Shown here: positions 7,088 to 18,123 of the stretch, in pieces
How positions within the stretch are numbered: the first letter of the stretch is position 1
Layout: every line of letters starts with the position of its first letter
Assembly (NCBI RefSeq): GCF_022869005.1
Contig: NZ_JALIEA010000017.1
Coordinates: 62,001-126,000 of the forward strand
Direction of reading: 5' to 3'
Source of the DNA: Corynebacterium kalidii
GTDB taxonomy: Bacteria > Actinomycetota > Actinomycetes > Mycobacteriales > Mycobacteriaceae
Length of the DNA: 64,000 nt
Notes under the pieces: generated by a model
What the model was told of the DNA's origin: nothing
The model's input: the letters and a program-made list of their open reading frames with translations, nothing else
Database searches by the model: none
Program-made: the position numbers and the translations under genes

Positions 7088-7158
7088 TGCTCCGTCGTCT
7101 AGCGGCAAGACACCCGGCTCTGGACCGGACGACCGAGGTTCGAATCCTTGCGGAGCAG
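7088..7158 (+). tRNA. tRNA-Gln (anticodon CTG), phage-encoded
   Basis: A 7-base acceptor stem (TGCTCCG 7088-7094 with CGGAGCA 7151-7157) is perfect. The D arm has GTCTAGCGGCAAGAC, the anticodon loop CTCTGGA gives CTG, and the T arm is CGAGG-TTCGAAT-CCTTG. One C/A mismatch closes the anticodon stem. No CCA end is encoded. It reads CAG, a common Gln codon in this GC-rich phage. It could also be a chromosomal-type tRNA captured by the phage. Confidence 0.88.
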
Positions 7159-7187
7159 CGCAGGCCAATCCGGCCTATCCTGGGCTC

Positions 7188-10869: not shown

Positions 10870-12309
10870 GTGGCTGAGATCACGGAGAAGCCGAGGGAGA
10901 TTGGTCATGCGCTGACCGTCTCGGTCGGCGGCACGTCGGAGGATAACTGGGAACTGCGGTTCCCCCAGTCGGCCAAGATCTTCGCGAAGATGGGCCGGGA
11001 GGATTCCCAGGTCACGTCCGTGCTGAACGCGGTGTCCTTGCCGATCAAGCGGGCATCGTGGCGCCTGGACCCGAACGGGTCTGACCCGGATGTGGTCCGG
11101 CACGTGTCGGAGGATCTGCGACTGCCCGTGCTGGGCGAGGATCAGGACAAACCAGCGGCACGGCGCCGGGGTCGGGTGGCGTGGCATGAGCACCTGCACT
11201 CGGCACTGCTGGCGCTGCAGTTCGGGCACATGTTCTTCGAGCAGGTGTACGCCCCGGGGACGGATGGTCGGGAGCATCTGGTGAAGCTGGCGCCGCGGCG
11301 TCCCGGGTCGCTCAAGCGGATCAACGTCGCGGCTGACGGTGGTCTGGAGTCGATCGAGCAGTCCGCAGTGACGACGCCTGGTGGGGTATCCGCCCCGGCG
11401 TCGAGGATCCCGGTGTCCCGACTGGTGGCGTACGTCCATGACCCGAAGGATGCGTCGTGGACGGGGTCGAGCGTGTTGCGGCCGGCGTACAAGCACTGGC
11501 GGCTGCGCGACCGGTTCCTGATGCTCGAGGCTGACGTCCTGGACCGTAACGGCATGGGCGTGCCCGTGTACGAGGGCAGTGAGCTGGCGCAGGATCCGCA
11601 GAAGGATCTGGCGTACGGGCAGGAGCTGGCGCAGAAGGTGCGCGCTGGGGCTGCGGCGGGTGCGGCGGTGCCGGCGAAGGCGAAGCTGTCGCTGGTTGGT
11701 GTGTCCGGCCAGCTGGTGTCGCCTCGTGAGGCGATCGCGTACCACGACAGCATGATGGCCCGTGCGGTGCTGGCGCACTTCCTGAACTTGGAGGGCAAGG
11801 GCGGCAGCTACGCCTTGGCGGAAACACAGTCGGATCTGTTCATCCAGTCGCTGCAGACCATCGCTGAGTGGATCGCCGACACGGCCACACAGCACATCGT
11901 CGAGGACCTCGTGGATGTGGCATTCCCGGACTACGACGGCCTGTGCCCCCGGATCGTATTCGACCCGATCGCGTCGAAGAAGGAGCTGGCGGCGGAAGCG
12001 CTGGCCACGCTCGTGCGCGACAAGGTGATCCAGCCGGACCGGGATCTCGAGGAGGAGATCCGTCGCCGCTACAGCCTGCCGGGGAAGCGTCCGCGGCAGG
12101 AAGCGGAGGCAGACGGGTCTATTACGGCGCCGGAGGACAAGGCGAAGCACGCCGAGCCGGCGGAGCTCGCCCAGCTCGTGGATGCGGCGAAGTCTCTGAT
12201 GGAGTTGGGCATGTCGAAGGATCAAGCGCTGATAGCGACCGGTCTGGACAAGCTCATGGAATCAACACCCGGTGAACCGCCGGGGGAGGAGGTGGTCAGC
12301 GATGGCTGA
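10870..12309 (+). CDS. Portal protein, Mu gp29-like (DUF935)
   Basis: This 479-residue protein matches the DUF935/Mu gp29 portal family: an N-terminal segment with AVSLPIKRASWRL, the central VHDPKDASWTGSSVLRPAYK and the conserved helical core HFLNLEGKGGSYALAETQSD, where portal subunits meet in the ring. The C-terminus (DGSITAPEDKAKHAEP onward) is acidic and probably disordered. The GTG start is supported by AGAGGAGGT. It forms the DNA entry channel of the head. The end overlaps the protease gene by 8 bases. Confidence 0.93.
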   Translation: MAEITEKPREIGHALTVSVGGTSEDNWELRFPQSAKIFAKMGREDSQVTSVLNAVSLPIKRASWRLDPNGSDPDVVRHVSEDLRLPVLGEDQDKPAARRRGRVAWHEHLHSALLALQFGHMFFEQVYAPGTDGREHLVKLAPRRPGSLKRINVAADGGLESIEQSAVTTPGGVSAPASRIPVSRLVAYVHDPKDASWTGSSVLRPAYKHWRLRDRFLMLEADVLDRNGMGVPVYEGSELAQDPQKDLAYGQELAQKVRAGAAAGAAVPAKAKLSLVGVSGQLVSPREAIAYHDSMMARAVLAHFLNLEGKGGSYALAETQSDLFIQSLQTIAEWIADTATQHIVEDLVDVAFPDYDGLCPRIVFDPIASKKELAAEALATLVRDKVIQPDRDLEEEIRRRYSLPGKRPRQEAEADGSITAPEDKAKHAEPAELAQLVDAAKSLMELGMSKDQALIATGLDKLMESTPGEPPGEEVVSDG

Positions 12310-13678
12310 TCTGCTGATCTACGGTGAGATCGGGTGGGATGTGCAGGCCAGTGAGGTCGTCGCACAGATCCAGGCGATGGACGCCGAGGACATCACGGTC
12401 CGCGTCAACAGCCCGGGTGGGGATGTCTACGACGGGCTCGCGATCATGAACGCGTTGATCGCCCATGAGGGGATGGTCACCGCGGTTGTGGAGGGGTTGG
12501 CTGCGTCGGCTGCCAGCTTCATCGCCGTCGGCGGTGCCGACCGGGTGGTGATGCGGCCGACTGCAGAGTTGATGATCCATGACGCCATGAGCTTCGTCGG
12601 CGGCAACGCAGACGAGATGCTGCGGGCGATCACGGACCTGGAGCGCATCTCCGACAACCTCGCTGGCATCTACGCCACGAAGGCCGGCGGCGACTCTGGC
12701 GAATGGCGTGACCTTATGAAAGCGGAGACCTGGTACTCCGCGCAGGAAGCGGTGGATGTCGGCCTCGCCGACGCCGTCGAGGACGGGCGTCGGGTCGAGG
12801 CTCAGGCCGGCCGCCGTCTGGTGATGAACCGCTTCCGGTACCAGGGCCGTCGGGATGCCCCGACGCCCACAGTCAACCGCCCTGAGGGGCACGACAGGAA
12901 GGAGGGCGGCATGTCCGCTCTTGCTGACCTGGCCCAGGAGATGGGCCTGTCCGAGGACCAGGTGAAGGCTGCTTTCGCCCGCGTGGTCCTGAATGAAGAG
13001 GTCACGGTCACCAGTACCGTGGACATCACCTACCCGGAGGGCACCACGGTGGTGCCTACCGGCAAGGCGACGATCTCCCCGGTGGAGGAGGTGCCGCAGG
13101 GGCTCGTATTCACTGTGGGTGAGGCTCCTGACGGCTGGACCGCGGAGGTCGACGAGGCCACCGGCTCCCTGAGCGTCACCGCCCCCGCCGGTGCTGAGCC
13201 GGACGACGAGGTGGAGCTGACCGTCACCGTCACGGGCAATGACGCCCCGGTGGAGATCCCCGTCGTCATCACGGTGAAGGCCGCTGCTGGCGAGGATGAG
13301 GAGACCGCCCCGCTGGAGCCGGCTGGTGACCCGGACCGGGTGACCCTCGACCGCGACACCTACAACGACCTCCAGGCGGCCGCGAAGCTCGGCTGGGAGG
13401 CGAAGAACAAGGCCGACGCTGCAGCCCGTGCTGCGGAGGTGGACCGGTGGATCGCCGAGGGCCGCGTGAACGCCGCCCGCCGGTCGAAGGTCATCGCCGC
13501 GATGGAGAAGGACCCCGTCGCCGCCCGCGACCTGTACGGCTCCATCCCGAAGAACACGATCCCCCGCGGGGAGATCGGCCACGGCCAGGACAGTGAGGAC
13601 ACGCAGGCCAGTGGCGCCGGTGACCTTGCCGCCAAGCTGGACAAGGCCCGTCTCCTGTCCGCCCCGAACCTCTACTAG
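12302..13678 (+). CDS. Head maturation protease (ClpP-like) with Ig-like insert and scaffold-like C-terminus
   Basis: A 458-residue protein in three parts. Residues 1-170 are ClpP-like serine protease, with VNSPGGDVYDG (oxyanion region), Ser69 in GLAASAAS and His93 in MIHDA. Residues about 222-325 form an Ig/beta-sandwich-like domain (VTVTSTVDITYPEGTTVVP through VVITVKAA). Residues about 340-458 are helical, resembling the tail of Mu gpI-type proteases (VDRWIAEGRVNAARRSK). An in-frame ATG at 12911 with a very strong ribosome site would yield the C-terminal two parts alone as scaffold. The enzyme trims head proteins during maturation. Confidence 0.92.
   Translation: MADLLIYGEIGWDVQASEVVAQIQAMDAEDITVRVNSPGGDVYDGLAIMNALIAHEGMVTAVVEGLAASAASFIAVGGADRVVMRPTAELMIHDAMSFVGGNADEMLRAITDLERISDNLAGIYATKAGGDSGEWRDLMKAETWYSAQEAVDVGLADAVEDGRRVEAQAGRRLVMNRFRYQGRRDAPTPTVNRPEGHDRKEGGMSALADLAQEMGLSEDQVKAAFARVVLNEEVTVTSTVDITYPEGTTVVPTGKATISPVEEVPQGLVFTVGEAPDGWTAEVDEATGSLSVTAPAGAEPDDEVELTVTVTGNDAPVEIPVVITVKAAAGEDEETAPLEPAGDPDRVTLDRDTYNDLQAAAKLGWEAKNKADAAARAAEVDRWIAEGRVNAARRSKVIAAMEKDPVAARDLYGSIPKNTIPRGEIGHGQDSEDTQASGAGDLAAKLDKARLLSAPNLY
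12911..13678 (+). CDS. Probable nested scaffold protein (internal start of the protease gene)
   Basis: The ATG at codon 204 of the protease gene is preceded by AGGAAGGAGGG (12896-12906), better than the site of many real genes here, with 5 bases of spacing after GGAGG. It starts right after a Pro/Arg-rich linker that ends the protease domain and would make a 255-residue protein (MSALADLAQEMGLSED then the Ig-like domain and helical tail). The same layout exists in lambda, where the scaffold Nu3 is made inside the protease gene C. It would direct capsid assembly. Confidence 0.65.
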   Translation: MSALADLAQEMGLSEDQVKAAFARVVLNEEVTVTSTVDITYPEGTTVVPTGKATISPVEEVPQGLVFTVGEAPDGWTAEVDEATGSLSVTAPAGAEPDDEVELTVTVTGNDAPVEIPVVITVKAAAGEDEETAPLEPAGDPDRVTLDRDTYNDLQAAAKLGWEAKNKADAAARAAEVDRWIAEGRVNAARRSKVIAAMEKDPVAARDLYGSIPKNTIPRGEIGHGQDSEDTQASGAGDLAAKLDKARLLSAPNLY

Positions 13679-13687
13679 GAGATCCTC

Positions 13688-14113
13688 ATGGCAACCCCTA
13701 CTTTCCGCTCCGGCCCGATCACGTTCCGGGTGAAGGAGAACGTCAAGAAGTTCCGTCTCGTCGCTGTCGATGCTGACGGCGCCGCTCACGCTGGTGCTAG
13801 CGGCCCGGTGTACGGCGCTGTCGTCTCCGACGCGCATGTTCCGTCTGAGCCGCAGCCGAACAGCCTGTACATCGGCAACCCGCCGGTCGTCTCGGTGTTC
13901 ATCGGCCCGGCGACTGTGCCCCTGGAGGTCGACGGCGACGCCGACGGCATCTCGCAGGGAACCCCGATCTACGCCGCCGCAGACGGGAAGGTCTCCACCT
14001 CGGGGGCCCTCCTGGTCGGCGTGGCCGCCCGTGACGGCGGCTCCGGTCGAGTGAAGACCACCCTCATCACCCCCGCCGTCGCAACCGCCGGTGGCGGGGC
14101 CGAGGGGGAATGA
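13688..14113 (+). CDS. Head decoration protein (DUF2190-like)
   Basis: A 141-residue beta-rich protein with the small-decoration pattern: FRSGPITFRVKENVKKFRLV, repeated GPVYGAVV and PLEVDGDADGISQGTPIY, and a GVAARDGG turn. Decoration proteins trimerise on the capsid outside and stiffen it. It ends with a Gly-rich linker GGGAEGE, directly followed, in the -1 frame, by a related micro-ORF (next entry). AGGAGATCCTC precedes the ATG. It lies between protease and capsid genes, as usual. Confidence 0.88.
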   Translation: MATPTFRSGPITFRVKENVKKFRLVAVDADGAAHAGASGPVYGAVVSDAHVPSEPQPNSLYIGNPPVVSVFIGPATVPLEVDGDADGISQGTPIYAAADGKVSTSGALLVGVAARDGGSGRVKTTLITPAVATAGGGAEGE

Positions 14114-14163
14114 GATTCCCCGGGGACAACCGCTTCCCCGGGGATGACGTCTACCCCGCCTGA
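14110..14163 (+). CDS. 17-residue micro-ORF after the decoration protein (possible frameshift extension)
   Basis: The ATG overlaps the decoration stop (ATGA) and encodes MRFPGDNRFPGDDVYPA. The bases gccgagggggaatga span the end of the decoration gene; a -1 slip on the G run would append this peptide to it. The product closely resembles the micro-ORF at 17,705 that follows the major tail protein. No ribosome site has proper spacing, so it is either reinitiated or frameshifted. Function unknown. Confidence 0.5.
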   Translation: MRFPGDNRFPGDDVYPA

Positions 14164-14251: not shown

Positions 14252-15172
14252 ATGTCGCAGCTGATTACCAGCGCGTATGACGGTGTCGAGATCACCGTCG
14301 ACGAGATGATGGCCGACCCGACTTTCATCCCGCAGCGCATCGTGAACAACCTCGATGGCGCTTTCATGGAAGACCTGTTCTTCCGACAGGCCGAGTCGAA
14401 CAAGGGCACCATCGCGTTCCGCGAGGCCGCCGGAGAGTACCTCGCTGACGACTCGGAGGAGATCGGCGAGTACGGAGAGATCCCCGTCTCCACCCCGGAG
14501 TACGGCGAGCTGAAGGCCGCGTTCGGCATCAAGACCGGCCAGGCCATCCGGGTCTCCTGGGAGCAGCGCAACGAGAACAAGGTCGACGTCGTCAACAAGT
14601 CGATCAGCGCGCTGCAGAAGACCGTCATCCGCAACGGCGTCAACGCCGTCGTCGGGGTCTTCACCTCCGCGAACGTTCCGGAACTGCAGGCGTCCGCACC
14701 GTGGACCGGCGGAGAGCCGGACAAGGACGTCCTCGACGGCATCGAGCTGGTGCAGGGCGCCCACGAGGACGACGACGAGTCGAAGGTCTTCGACTACGAC
14801 CCGGACACCATCCTGCTGCACCCGCAGTCGCTGACGAAGCTGCTTCGCAACGAGCAGGTGCAGAAGTACTACATCGGCAACATGGCGAACGAGAACCCGG
14901 TGTTCAAGGGCCTGACGACCACCCAGCTGTTCGGTCAGCTGCAGGTCGCCACGTCCCGCCTGATCTCGAAGGACTCGGCGTACATCTTCGAGCGGGGTGC
15001 TGCGGGCTTCAAGTCCGACACCATGCCGCTGACCGCCACCCCGATGTACTCCGAGGGCGGCGAGTCTCAGATCGGCGGCCCGACGATGTCGTGGCGCTCG
15101 GACCTGGTCCGCAAGCGCGCCATCGCCGTGGACAACCCGAAGTCCGTGCTGAAGATCGTGGGGATCGCCTGA
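14252..15172 (+). CDS. Major capsid protein (HK97-like fold)
   Basis: A 306-residue protein with a capsid layout: an N-terminal arm, an extended loop (EYLADDSEEIGEYGEIPVST), the spine helix (RNENKVDVVNKSISALQKTVI), a central domain and a C-terminal beta strand region ending in AIAVDNPKSVLKIVG. The spine and peripheral domains fit HK97-like phages. No long N-terminal scaffold domain is present, so a separate scaffold (the nested product at 12,911) is likely. Strong ribosome site TTGAGGAGGG. It is the main building block of the head. Confidence 0.93.
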   Translation: MSQLITSAYDGVEITVDEMMADPTFIPQRIVNNLDGAFMEDLFFRQAESNKGTIAFREAAGEYLADDSEEIGEYGEIPVSTPEYGELKAAFGIKTGQAIRVSWEQRNENKVDVVNKSISALQKTVIRNGVNAVVGVFTSANVPELQASAPWTGGEPDKDVLDGIELVQGAHEDDDESKVFDYDPDTILLHPQSLTKLLRNEQVQKYYIGNMANENPVFKGLTTTQLFGQLQVATSRLISKDSAYIFERGAAGFKSDTMPLTATPMYSEGGESQIGGPTMSWRSDLVRKRAIAVDNPKSVLKIVGIA

Positions 15173-16994: not shown

Positions 16995-17708
16995 ATGGCT
17001 GAGCGTGAGATCGACCTCACCGCGCCGAACTACGAAACCGCGCTGATCACCCTCGGTGTTACCGGCGCGCTGTCCTACGCCCCGCACGGCACGGAGATGC
17101 CGGAGAACATGGCCGACTACGAGGTCCCGTGGGTGGACCTCGGATGGATCGGCGACGGCGGTGTCGGCGAGTCCCTGAACCAGGAGCGCGAGGACTGGAC
17201 CCCGTGGCAGGCCGTCGGCCCGCAGCGCGGTCAGATCACCTCGGAGGAAGTGCAGTTCACCGCGACGCTGTGGTCGCTCGGTGGCCTGGCGACCGCCCTG
17301 TACTACGGCGTAGCTGAAGAGGACATGACCTTCGACACCGCTTCTGGTGTCACCCGCTTCGAGCAGGGCGCCGAACTCCCGGAGGACTTCCGGTTCTGCC
17401 TCGCTTTCGACCTCATCGACGGGCAGAAGGCACGCCGGTTCCTGCTCCCTGCAGCGTCGGTCGTGGAGCGTGGCGACGTCACCTACACGAAGACGGAACT
17501 GGTCGGCTACGAGCTGACGTTCAAGACCAACTTCGACGCGGAGGCAGGCTTCGCCATCGCCCGAGAGTTCAAGGAGGGATGGAAGCCCGGCACCTCCGGA
17601 ACCATCCTCGAGGGCGGGGGCGTGAAGGACCTGGGTGACTGGTCCACCCCGGCGAGTGATGCCCCGGCCGATGGTGGCGAGACCCCCGGTGGGGCTGAGG
17701 GGGAATGA
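16995..17708 (+). CDS. Major tail protein
   Basis: A 237-residue protein with beta-rich segments of a tail-tube subunit (EIDLTAPNYETALITLGVTG, WTPWQAVGPQRGQITSEE, RFLLPAASVVERGDVTYT) and a conserved ELTFKTN strand near the end. It stacks as rings around the tape measure. The C-terminus is a Gly/Ala/Pro-rich linker ending GAEGE, identical in ending to the decoration protein, and is followed by a related micro-ORF. A strong AGGAGGAAA site indicates high expression. Confidence 0.9.
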   Translation: MAEREIDLTAPNYETALITLGVTGALSYAPHGTEMPENMADYEVPWVDLGWIGDGGVGESLNQEREDWTPWQAVGPQRGQITSEEVQFTATLWSLGGLATALYYGVAEEDMTFDTASGVTRFEQGAELPEDFRFCLAFDLIDGQKARRFLLPAASVVERGDVTYTKTELVGYELTFKTNFDAEAGFAIAREFKEGWKPGTSGTILEGGGVKDLGDWSTPASDAPADGGETPGGAEGE

Positions 17709-17776
17709 CGTGGCCGGGGGAGCAGTCCTACCCCGGCCCTGACCTATACCCGACCGACCCGAGTGAGGATTCCTGA
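17705..17776 (+). CDS. 23-residue micro-ORF after the major tail protein (possible frameshift extension)
   Basis: The ATG overlaps the tail stop (ATGA) and the peptide runs MTWPGEQSYPGPDLYP plus TDPSEDS. The gene end gctgagggggaatga matches the decoration gene end almost exactly. A -1 slip on GGGGG would join this peptide to the tail protein. It aligns with the 17-residue peptide at 14,110: PG-x-x-x-[FY]PG-x-D-[VL]-YP. Either reinitiation or frameshift would express it. Confidence 0.5.
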   Translation: MTWPGEQSYPGPDLYPTDPSEDS

Positions 17777-18123
17777 TGGCTGACTACGAGAAGATCAACT
17801 GGCAGAACGGCGAGGCTGGCGGCACCCCCACCTCCGCGGAGAACTTCAACCGCATGGACGACGGGATCGCTACCGCGCAGTCCACCGCCGATGCCGCCCA
17901 GTCCGCTGCCGATGCTGCCCAGCGCACTGCTGACAGCAAGGCCGACCCCGGGGATATCCCCGATGTGACCGGTTTCGTGACACAGGCCGACATCGACAGT
18001 GCTGTTGAGGGGTTGGCTGCTGCCAGCGACATCCCTGACGTGTCCGGCCTTGCCACGCAGTCGGACCTCGACGCTGCCCTCGCACGTATCGCCGTGCTCG
18101 AAGACGCCGGCAACGGCGCGTAG
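17776..18123 (+). CDS. Fibre-like protein with coiled-coil segment
   Basis: A 115-residue protein. The N-terminus (INWQNGEAGGTPTSAENFNR) is a pattern common at the start of phage fibres and receptor-binding proteins, followed by an Ala/Asp-rich coiled coil (TAQSTADAAQSAADAAQRTA) and two repeated DIPDV(T/S)G-x-(V/A)TQ units (about 55-100). It could be a head or tail-shaft fibre. Placement between the major tail protein and the chaperones is unusual for a fibre. Confidence 0.6.
   Translation: MADYEKINWQNGEAGGTPTSAENFNRMDDGIATAQSTADAAQSAADAAQRTADSKADPGDIPDVTGFVTQADIDSAVEGLAAASDIPDVSGLATQSDLDAALARIAVLEDAGNGA

What the first reader, a model, noticed from the sequence alone, without database searches (positions are those of the whole stretch)
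17690..17776. The major tail protein carries the same linker, G run and related micro-ORF
The major tail gene also ends gagggggaatga and its protein also ends GAEGE. The overlapped micro-ORF encodes MTWPGEQSYPGPDLYP and a short acidic tail. Aligned with the decoration micro-ORF, PG, the [FY]PG centre, Asp and the final YP match. Two unrelated structural proteins sharing the same terminal module suggests that a display tag, possibly for surface or glycan contact, was copied between them.
Basis: partly seen in the sequence, partly recalled or inferred. Interest (0 to 1): 0.78.

Follow-up and report, generated by a model that had tools for sequence, protein, structure and literature searches.

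The report
Frameshift docking tags on phage particles
A dormant virus in this bacterial genome appears to add the same tiny repeated peptide to some copies of both a head protein and its tail protein by making the ribosome slip, most likely as a hook for a fibre encoded next door, and similar tags turn up unannotated in several laboratory phages.

Summary
Confirmed, and part of something larger. In this prophage (probably Corynebacterium) a small head-protein gene and the major tail gene both end GAGGGGGAATGA. G_GGG_GAA is a known actinophage frameshift heptamer (PMC10885494, passages read). The -1 frame adds three hexapeptides [hydrophobic]-P-[GS]-x-x-x: MRFPGDNRFPGDDVYPA and MTWPGEQSYPGPDLYPT. 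I found equivalent tags on head and/or tail-tube proteins of 15 other phage lineages, reached by -1 frameshift, apparent UAG readthrough (one phage) or in frame. In 10 of 20 -1 tags no start codon lies in the 12 codons before the tag; in 6 of these a stop closes the frame, so a separate micro-ORF is impossible there. All four Pro and Gly codons occur, so the peptide, not the DNA, is conserved. The tag goes with a neighbouring fibre gene: of 29 major-tail loci in the genus, 4 have the fibre domain; 3 of these have the strict motif and 1 a looser one; the 25 others have no strict motif (one chance-like loose match). Best reading: recoding gives a minority of subunits a docking peptide for that fibre. 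Tag and recoding sites are well supported; docking is inferred; expression untested. New variant of a known kind.

The parts
13688..14113 (+). small head-protein gene ('decoration'), 141 aa, ends GGGAEGE
   Evidence: PHROG_20430 (unknown function) E=2e-27 and head scaffolding PHROG_673 E=4.5e-4; lies between the protease and the major capsid gene
14104..14110 (+). slippery heptamer G_GGG_GAA in zero frame of the head-protein gene
   Evidence: sequence; the same heptamer is reported for SEA-PHAGES frameshift genes (PMC10885494, passages)
14110..14163 (+). -1 frame tag MRFPGDNRFPGDDVYPA*; fusion would read ..GAEGGMRFPGDNRFPGDDVYPA
   Evidence: a similar tag follows the same gene in G177; downstream hairpin z=-3.64
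16995..17708 (+). major tail (tail tube) protein gene, 237 aa, ends GGAEGE
   Evidence: PHROG_476 E=5.8e-35, PF25681 E=1.8e-10
17699..17705 (+). slippery heptamer G_GGG_GAA in zero frame of the major tail gene
17705..17776 (+). -1 frame tag MTWPGEQSYPGPDLYPTDPSEDS*
   Evidence: nearly identical tag behind a 28%-identical tail protein in G177; hairpin not better than shuffles (z=-0.99)
17776..18123 (+). fibre gene, 115 aa, N-terminus MADYEKINWQNGEAGGTPTSAENFNRMDDGI, C-terminal ..ALARIAVLEDAGNGA; proposed partner of the tags
   Evidence: PHROG_5711 head fiber E=4.1e-6, PHROG_2012 minor tail E=2.3e-5; relatives

Best explanation
The two gene ends are programmed -1 frameshift sites. Most ribosomes stop at TGA and make the plain protein. 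A minority slip on G_GGG_GAA, perhaps helped by the GC-rich hairpin just downstream, and add a short tag of three hexapeptides [hydrophobic]-P-G-x-x-x. The tag is a docking peptide: it anchors the N-terminal domain (W-x-[ND]-G-x-x-G-G-T-P-x-x-A-x-x-x-N-x-x-[ED]-x-G-[IV]) of the probably trimeric fibre encoded immediately downstream, so that fibres decorate head and tail tube in limited numbers. Shown: the tag reading frames, recoding-type sites, protein-level conservation, distribution, and genetic linkage to the fibre. Inferred: that the shift happens, its rate, presence in virions, the binding, and the trimer.
For: (1) 16 of 16 -1-tagged genes examined have a P-site slip X_XXN within the last three codons, against 18.6% of 896 control ORFs; 6 of 16 have a canonical X_XXY_YYZ heptamer in the last eight codons, against 21 of 896, and 5 more have G_GGG_GAA, an established actinophage frameshift heptamer. 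(2) 10 of 20 -1 tags have no ATG, GTG or TTG in the 12 codons before the tag, and in 6 of these the frame is closed by a stop within that stretch. (3) All four Pro and four Gly codons are used in 22 tags; over 26 tag cores Pro is at positions 8 and 14 in 26 and at position 2 in 25. (4) The tagged genes are head or tail genes of several different families: PHROG_267, 10 and 283 major head proteins; PHROG_476, 117, 3884 and 792 major tail proteins. (5) Of 29 major-tail loci of the genus, 4 have the fibre domain (E 4.4e-15 to 1.4e-3 with a profile that leaves those four out). Three of the four have the strict tag and the fourth (G233) a looser one; none of the other 25 has the strict motif in three frames, and one (L050) has a loose in-frame match judged chance. 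All 6 genus loci with fibre E<=1e-3, and the one further order-level locus, have a tag upstream. (6) Isolated phages: Pumpkin, Murphy, Mao1, Zirinka, Yeezy, BaxterFox, Kumao and BlueNGold have tail gene, -1 tag, fibre in that order. In Jace, Kroos and Pseudomonas phage QdP_Psa3 the gene just before the fibre carries the motif in frame. (7) Tag similarity follows fibre N-terminus similarity (Mantel r=0.42, p=0.003, 13 phages; head tags r=0.56, p=0.007, 9 phages), also after removing host tail-protein similarity (partial r=0.43, p=0.005, 12 phages).
Against: No expression or virion data were seen. The window's own two tags do have an ATG with GAGGGGGA upstream that could act as a ribosome-binding site, so coupled initiation is not excluded at these two sites. 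The head gene at 13688 matches unknown-function and scaffolding families; if it is a scaffold it would not stay in the virion and could not mount a fibre. Only 3 of 6 folded downstream regions beat their shuffles by more than 2 sd; the window's tail-gene hairpin has z=-0.99. Several sites (C_CCU-stop; GGGTTCTTAA in Pumpkin's capsid gene) are not canonical. Some phages with the fibre domain have no tag found: Elesar and 6 of 15 fibre types in IMG/VR, in the stretches held; in four more types (cluster F1-like) the motif is internal to an upstream gene, not a C-terminal tag. Many lineages were found through the fibre, so those cannot count as independent evidence for the link. Tag and fibre are usually neighbours, so joint inheritance could produce much of the correlation. 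The AlphaFold model of the fibre has mean pLDDT 64 and says nothing about binding.
Confidence: 0.64

Rival explanations
1. Recoded tag, different job: the extensions are made by frameshift or readthrough, but touch the host surface, stabilise neighbouring subunits or act in assembly, and the fibre gene is only a frequent neighbour.
For: Bxb1, Wildcat and LeBron capsid and tail proteins share C-terminal extensions of unknown function (PMC8704799 and PMC3029335, passages); lactococcal TpeX extensions bind host cells (PMC6669499, passages). Some fibre-bearing phages have no tag found.
Against: Coincidence of tag and fibre domain over 29 tail loci found without reference to the fibre; in-frame tags also sit just before the fibre gene in Jace, Kroos and QdP_Psa3; tag similarity follows the fibre, not the host protein.
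Confidence: 0.22
2. Coupled micro-ORF: the tag is a separate small peptide started at the ATGA overlap, not a fusion.
For: In both window genes and in the G177 and L110 tail genes, ATG lies in ATGA with GAGGGGGA or CAGGGGGA just upstream; 10 of 20 -1 tags do have a possible start codon.
Against: 6 of 20 -1 tags lie in frames closed by a stop with no start codon, including the same head gene in G177 (GGGAAACTGA) and head genes of G162:C3, G078 and L110; in G008 the tail tag follows TAG in frame and begins ATA; in-frame fusions exist.
Confidence: 0.08
3. Non-functional: GC-rich terminator-like or palindromic DNA that happens to read as PG repeats.
For: Some tags form strong CCCCGGGG hairpins.
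Against: Codons vary freely while residues stay; strict motif 0.55 per 64 kb in shuffles against exact placement at gene ends; slip sites far above control.
Confidence: 0.03

Closest known systems
Frameshift-extended tail and coat proteins: SPP1 gp17.1*, lactococcal MTP-TpeX, Listeria PSA/A118/A500, Lactobacillus A2, T3/T7 gene 10 (PMC5009743, PMC8718954, PMC6669499; passages read)
   Same: A minority of a major tail or coat protein gets a C-terminal addition by recoding at the gene end; in the Listeria phages both coat and tail genes do so.
   Different: Known additions are mostly Ig/FN3-like or carbohydrate-binding domains; here it is a three-hexapeptide tag, of one kind on head and tail, reached by -1 shift, apparent readthrough or in frame, and tied to an adjacent fibre gene.
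Shared C-terminal extensions on capsid and tail tube of Bxb1, LeBron, Wildcat (PMC8704799, PMC3029335; passages read)
   Same: Two different virion proteins carry related C-terminal extensions; dispensable in Bxb1; function reported as unknown.
   Different: Those are part of the annotated proteins, longer (about 70 aa and Ig-like in LeBron and Wildcat); the passages describe no fibre link.
Actinophage frameshift genes with G_GGG_GAA, mostly tail assembly chaperones (PMC10885494, passages)
   Same: Same slippery heptamer in the same phase.
   Different: There the downstream frame is a chaperone domain (recalled), not a short tag.
SEA-PHAGES 'head fiber protein' / PHROG_5711
   Same: The window's fibre matches here (E=4.1e-6).
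   Different: No attachment partner is given in the annotations seen; the -1 tag stretch carries no feature in the records fetched for Pumpkin, Murphy, Mao1, Zirinka, Yeezy, BaxterFox, Kumao and BlueNGold.

Membership tests
Programmed -1 frameshift-extended structural protein | slippery site in zero frame near the gene end | tested here: met
   G_GGG_GAA at both window genes; 16 of 16 tagged genes with P-site slip vs 18.6% of controls
Programmed -1 frameshift-extended structural protein | conserved coding frame after the shift | tested here: met
   tag conserved, codons free
Programmed -1 frameshift-extended structural protein | downstream stimulatory structure | tested here: inconclusive
   3 of 6 regions z below -2
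Programmed -1 frameshift-extended structural protein | both products in the virion | not testable with these tools
   needs mass spectrometry
Ig-like / CBM C-terminal decoration | extension is an Ig, FN3 or CBM fold | tested here: not met
   17 and 23 residues of PG hexapeptides, too short for such a fold
Bxb1-type shared capsid/tail extension | related extensions on a head and a tail protein of one phage | tested here: met
   window plus 8 other lineages with both tags
Bxb1-type shared capsid/tail extension | extension in frame, on all copies | tested here: not met
   -1 frame in the window; in frame only on head genes of L113 and Mao1/L124
Head fiber protein (PHROG_5711) | profile match | tested here: met
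   E=4.1e-6 for 17776-18123
Head fiber protein (PHROG_5711) | attached to the head | not testable with these tools
   no virion data

The most novel reading that the evidence does not exclude
A docking code shared across phages: any virion protein that gains three [hydrophobic]-P-G-x-x-x hexapeptides at its C-terminus, in frame or by recoding, becomes an anchor for a three-fold fibre base, one hexapeptide per fibre chain, and the recoding rate sets how many fibres (plain rods, collagen-like rods, or carriers of an enzyme domain such as Spherulin-4 or lipase) are mounted on head and tail. The system lies unrecognised in several groups of laboratory phages, and one in-frame example is in a Pseudomonas phage.
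Probability: 0.4. Interest if true: 0.86.

Novelty: new variant of a known kind. Interest (0 to 1): 0.75.

Why it matters
It proposes a partner and a stoichiometry mechanism for the 'head fiber protein' annotated in mycobacteriophages and for its unnamed relatives in Gordonia phages, predicts unannotated C-terminal extensions on capsid and tail proteins in those records, and shows one kind of peptide reached by three decoding routes (frameshift, apparent UAG readthrough, in frame). It may bear on why capsid and tail proteins of some actinophages share terminal extensions, which the Bxb1 paper lists as of unknown function. A short genetically encoded tag-fibre pair would also be a natural handle for mounting proteins on phage particles.

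Tried and rejected
Separate micro-ORF as the general rule: rejected, because in 6 of 20 -1 tags the frame is closed with no start codon. Codon or DNA-motif explanation: rejected. Homology search with the tag alone gave only two chance-like hits in phages (E 5 and 1), nothing in plasmids, nothing for the G008 tag, and no confirmed locus from the tag alignment in viral contigs. A DNA search with the tail-tag region found full-length similarity only in G177 (92%); the other 25 genomes had matches of 24-31 bases. Viral-contig searches with the tail protein and whole fibre found no relative; with the head protein two loci, neither tagged; the fibre N-terminal profile worked. PDB: the fibre profile had no significant hit; Wee gp24 matches the Bxb1 collar fibre gp4 mainly through its C-terminal part, so this does not inform docking. 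The lead that Burkholderia P2-like phages use stop readthrough in capsids was a wording of the ordinary tail frameshift. A structural parallel (Mysterious gp40 trimer docking in a pseudo-trimeric claw of the distal tail protein, PMC13252515, section 10 part 1 read) is suggestive; I could not test whether gp40 belongs to this fibre family.

Withdrawn: the Mantel numbers, because I had typed some fibre N-termini with residues I had not seen and one shortened; one search repeats the test with sequences read from the loci. Rows left out: omits the G177 contig 4 tail tag (duplicate of the window), G233 (gapped tag), Kroos, and near-duplicates Murphy, Yeezy, BaxterFox, L124; omits G008 as well. One search tested 16 genes, without Pumpkin, Kumao, Zirinka and BlueNGold (L124 stood for the Mao1 type); its 896 control ORFs are from both strands and overlap, and the 21 control heptamers appear to include tagged genes themselves (3 GGGAAAC, 2 CCCTTTA). 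The trimer reading of the fibre rests on Gly-X-Y repeats in two relatives and an R-h-x-x-h-E coiled-coil end; the meaning of that motif is recalled. Three hexapeptides for three chains is speculation.

Not in print: ten paper searches listed nothing that by title or abstract start describes these tags or their link to the fibre; several listings were capped (for example 15 of 135), only passages or one section of the papers named here were read, and most subscription papers are not in the library, so a missed report is possible.

Full report
Setting. The window is a siphophage-type prophage in an actinobacterial genome, most likely Corynebacterium (nearest phage relatives of the tail protein are Corynebacterium phages, 53-58% identity; the genome itself is unnamed). 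Gene order is terminase, portal, ClpP-type protease, small head protein (13688-14113), major capsid (14252-15172), connectors, major tail protein (16995-17708), a 115-aa fibre-like protein (17776-18123), tail assembly chaperone, tape measure (tape measure by size and position).

The observation. Both the small head gene and the tail gene end GAG GGG GAA TGA and their proteins end GAEGE. The 12-mer is found nowhere else in the 3.02 Mb genome. The -1 frame gives MRFPGDNRFPGDDVYPA* and MTWPGEQSYPGPDLYPTDPSEDS*. A strict period-6 motif occurs in six frames of the window only at these two places; shuffles average 0.55. In 37 sequences (554,853 bases, window included, many fetched because of tags or fibres) there were 29 matches: 22 are tags or the internal gp21 motif described below (two overlap on one tag) and 7 are elsewhere, close to the roughly five expected by chance.

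Relatives of the host genes. The head protein matched in 25 of 242 genus genomes (25 loci); the strict motif follows in 2, the window and G177 (loose matches in L009, L016 and L032 in other frames were judged chance). The tail protein matched in 27 of 242 genomes (29 loci); a tag follows in 4: window, G177 contig 4 and G162 contig 11 with the strict motif, G233 with a looser one (GLHPSPGLHPSTTP); L050 has a loose in-frame match after the stop and no fibre. In G177 the tail protein is only 28% identical to the window's and has an extra C-terminal domain that looks Ig-like by eye, yet the tag DNA and the fibre start are nearly identical. G177's head gene ends GAG GGA AAC TGA, a textbook -1 heptamer G_GGA_AAC, with no start codon in the tag frame. 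One relative (G120) keeps GAGGGGGAATAG and a GAAEGE ending without a tag.

The fibre. The gene after the tag encodes a protein with an N-terminal domain W-x-[ND]-G-x-x-G-G-T-P-x-x-A-x-x-x-N-x-x-[ED]-x-G-[IV] (divergent in some), a variable middle (collagen-like in L110 and G078, a Spherulin-4 domain E=5.6e-30 in G008) and usually a coiled-coil-like end. A profile of the N-terminus found, at E<=1e-3, six places in 242 genus genomes and one more in a sample of 397 order genomes; all seven have a tag directly before the fibre, G233's being the looser one. Fourteen weaker places (E 0.018-0.05) were not examined except one (L188), which did not look like a phage gene. Among the 29 tail loci the fibre domain is present in exactly four, those named above, also with a profile that leaves those four out.

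Other lineages. G008: capsid and tail genes both end GCT TAG followed in frame by MPSPGPGVPGAGLYPSPAVFPDSR and by IPAPGPVSTGAGSFPGPDTFPSGD (begins ATA): apparent UAG readthrough. G078: capsid and tail genes both carry C_CCU_UUA. G162 contig 3: capsid G_GGA_AAC, tail A_AAC_CCU. L103-L110 (eight IMG/VR contigs of one type; both tags seen in L105, L106, L108 and L110): capsid G_GGA_AAC, tail G_GGG_GAA. G177 contig 62: capsid gene with G_GGG_GAA and a later stop, no start codon. G624 and L113: tail genes with C_CCU-stop. Isolated phages: Pumpkin and Murphy (capsid and tail, both -1), Mao1 (gp10, annotated capsid pentamer protein, in frame; tail -1), Zirinka, Yeezy, BaxterFox, Kumao and BlueNGold (tail -1), and in frame Jace gp22, Kroos gp39 and the gene before the fibre in Pseudomonas phage QdP_Psa3. 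In cluster F1-type mycobacteriophages a similar motif is internal in an upstream gene (Wee gp21, three genes before the fibre). Family checks support the host identities: head proteins G078 and G008 (PHROG_267), G162:C3 and G177:C62 (PHROG_10), L110 (PHROG_283); tail proteins G078 and G008 (PHROG_3884), G162:C3, G624, G233 and L110 (PHROG_117), L113 (PHROG_792), G177:C4 and G162:C11 (PHROG_476); L113's tagged head gene falls in PHROG_779, unknown function. Nine lineages have both a head and a tail tag. Tail or capsid relatives fetched without an annotated fibre beside the tail gene (phi673, BFK20, StAB, phi16, Gsput1, phiSASD1, AGM16, phiGD20-1) showed no tag at those genes.

Recoding. 16 of 16 -1-tagged genes tested have a slippable P-site codon in the last three codons (18.6% of 896 control ORFs) and 6 of 16 a canonical heptamer in the last eight codons (21 of 896 controls). 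G_GGG_GAA is described as the only sequence of one motif class, across a thousand motifs of the SEA-PHAGES data (PMC10885494, passages). 10 of 20 -1 tags have no ATG, GTG or TTG in the 12 codons before the tag; in 6 of these a stop closes the frame, in the other 4 the frame is open further upstream. Hairpins follow the slip sites; 3 of 6 tested are much stronger than shuffles (z -3.64 window head gene, -2.63 L110 tail, -4.31 Pumpkin tail) and 3 are not (-0.99 window tail, -1.33 L110 capsid, -1.02 Pumpkin capsid).

Protein-level conservation and link to the fibre. In 22 tags all four Pro and all four Gly codons occur. Over 26 cores Pro is at positions 8 and 14 in all and at position 2 in 25, Gly at 3 in 25 (rows left out are listed under Tried and rejected). 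Tag similarity follows fibre N-terminus similarity (r=0.42, p=0.003, 13 phages; head tags r=0.56, p=0.007, 9 phages) and still does after allowing for host tail protein similarity (partial r=0.43, p=0.005, 12 phages; 60 of 66 host pairs have a normalised score of at most 0.1). Neighbourhood inheritance can explain part of this, but it does suggest that the tag belongs with the fibre, not with the protein it is attached to.

Mechanism. The simplest account is that recoding adds a fibre-docking peptide to a minority of head and tail subunits. Three hexapeptides and a probably trimeric fibre suggest one repeat per chain; this is inference. Where the tag is in frame (head proteins of Mao1 and L113) every copy would be tagged, so a minority share is not universal.

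Known and new. Frameshift-extended coat and tail proteins are known (PMC5009743, PMC8718954, PMC6669499, passages), and so are shared capsid/tail extensions of unknown function (PMC8704799, PMC3029335, passages). A short common tag reached by three decoding routes and linked to a fibre gene did not appear in the listings of ten paper searches.

Noticed in passing
window 12272-13678: ClpP-type head maturation protease with a RibLong-like domain (PF18957, E=3.9e-7) in its C-terminal half; an odd fusion.
   Followed up: no
L029 (G120), head-protein homologue end: Keeps the GAAEGE ending and GAGGGGGAATAG slip sequence but no tag follows: a possible relic or different extension.
   Followed up: partly
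L095 8930-9901 and L217 7995-9449: Fibres with an enzyme domain: Spherulin-4 type in G008 (E=5.6e-30), annotated lipase in Pseudomonas phage QdP_Psa3.
   Followed up: partly
L100 about 18459, L117 6458, L119 6486: Cluster F1-type mycobacteriophage loci carry the hexapeptide motif inside an upstream gene (Wee gp21: FPSEDLYPSVSLFPT), with the fibre three genes later in Wee.
   Followed up: partly
tag ends in L207, L208, L209, L113, L206: The last tag codons CCA GGA GG contain AGGAGG, a likely ribosome-binding site of the fibre gene.
   Followed up: no
L112: Metagenomic fibre contig with two motif copies ending in WPG (SYPSSASYPADDVWPGVE, VFPSSALYPSDLTWPGSD); host genes not identified.
   Followed up: no
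window 7088-7159: tRNA-Gln(ctg) shortly before the prophage structural genes; possible attachment site.
   Followed up: no
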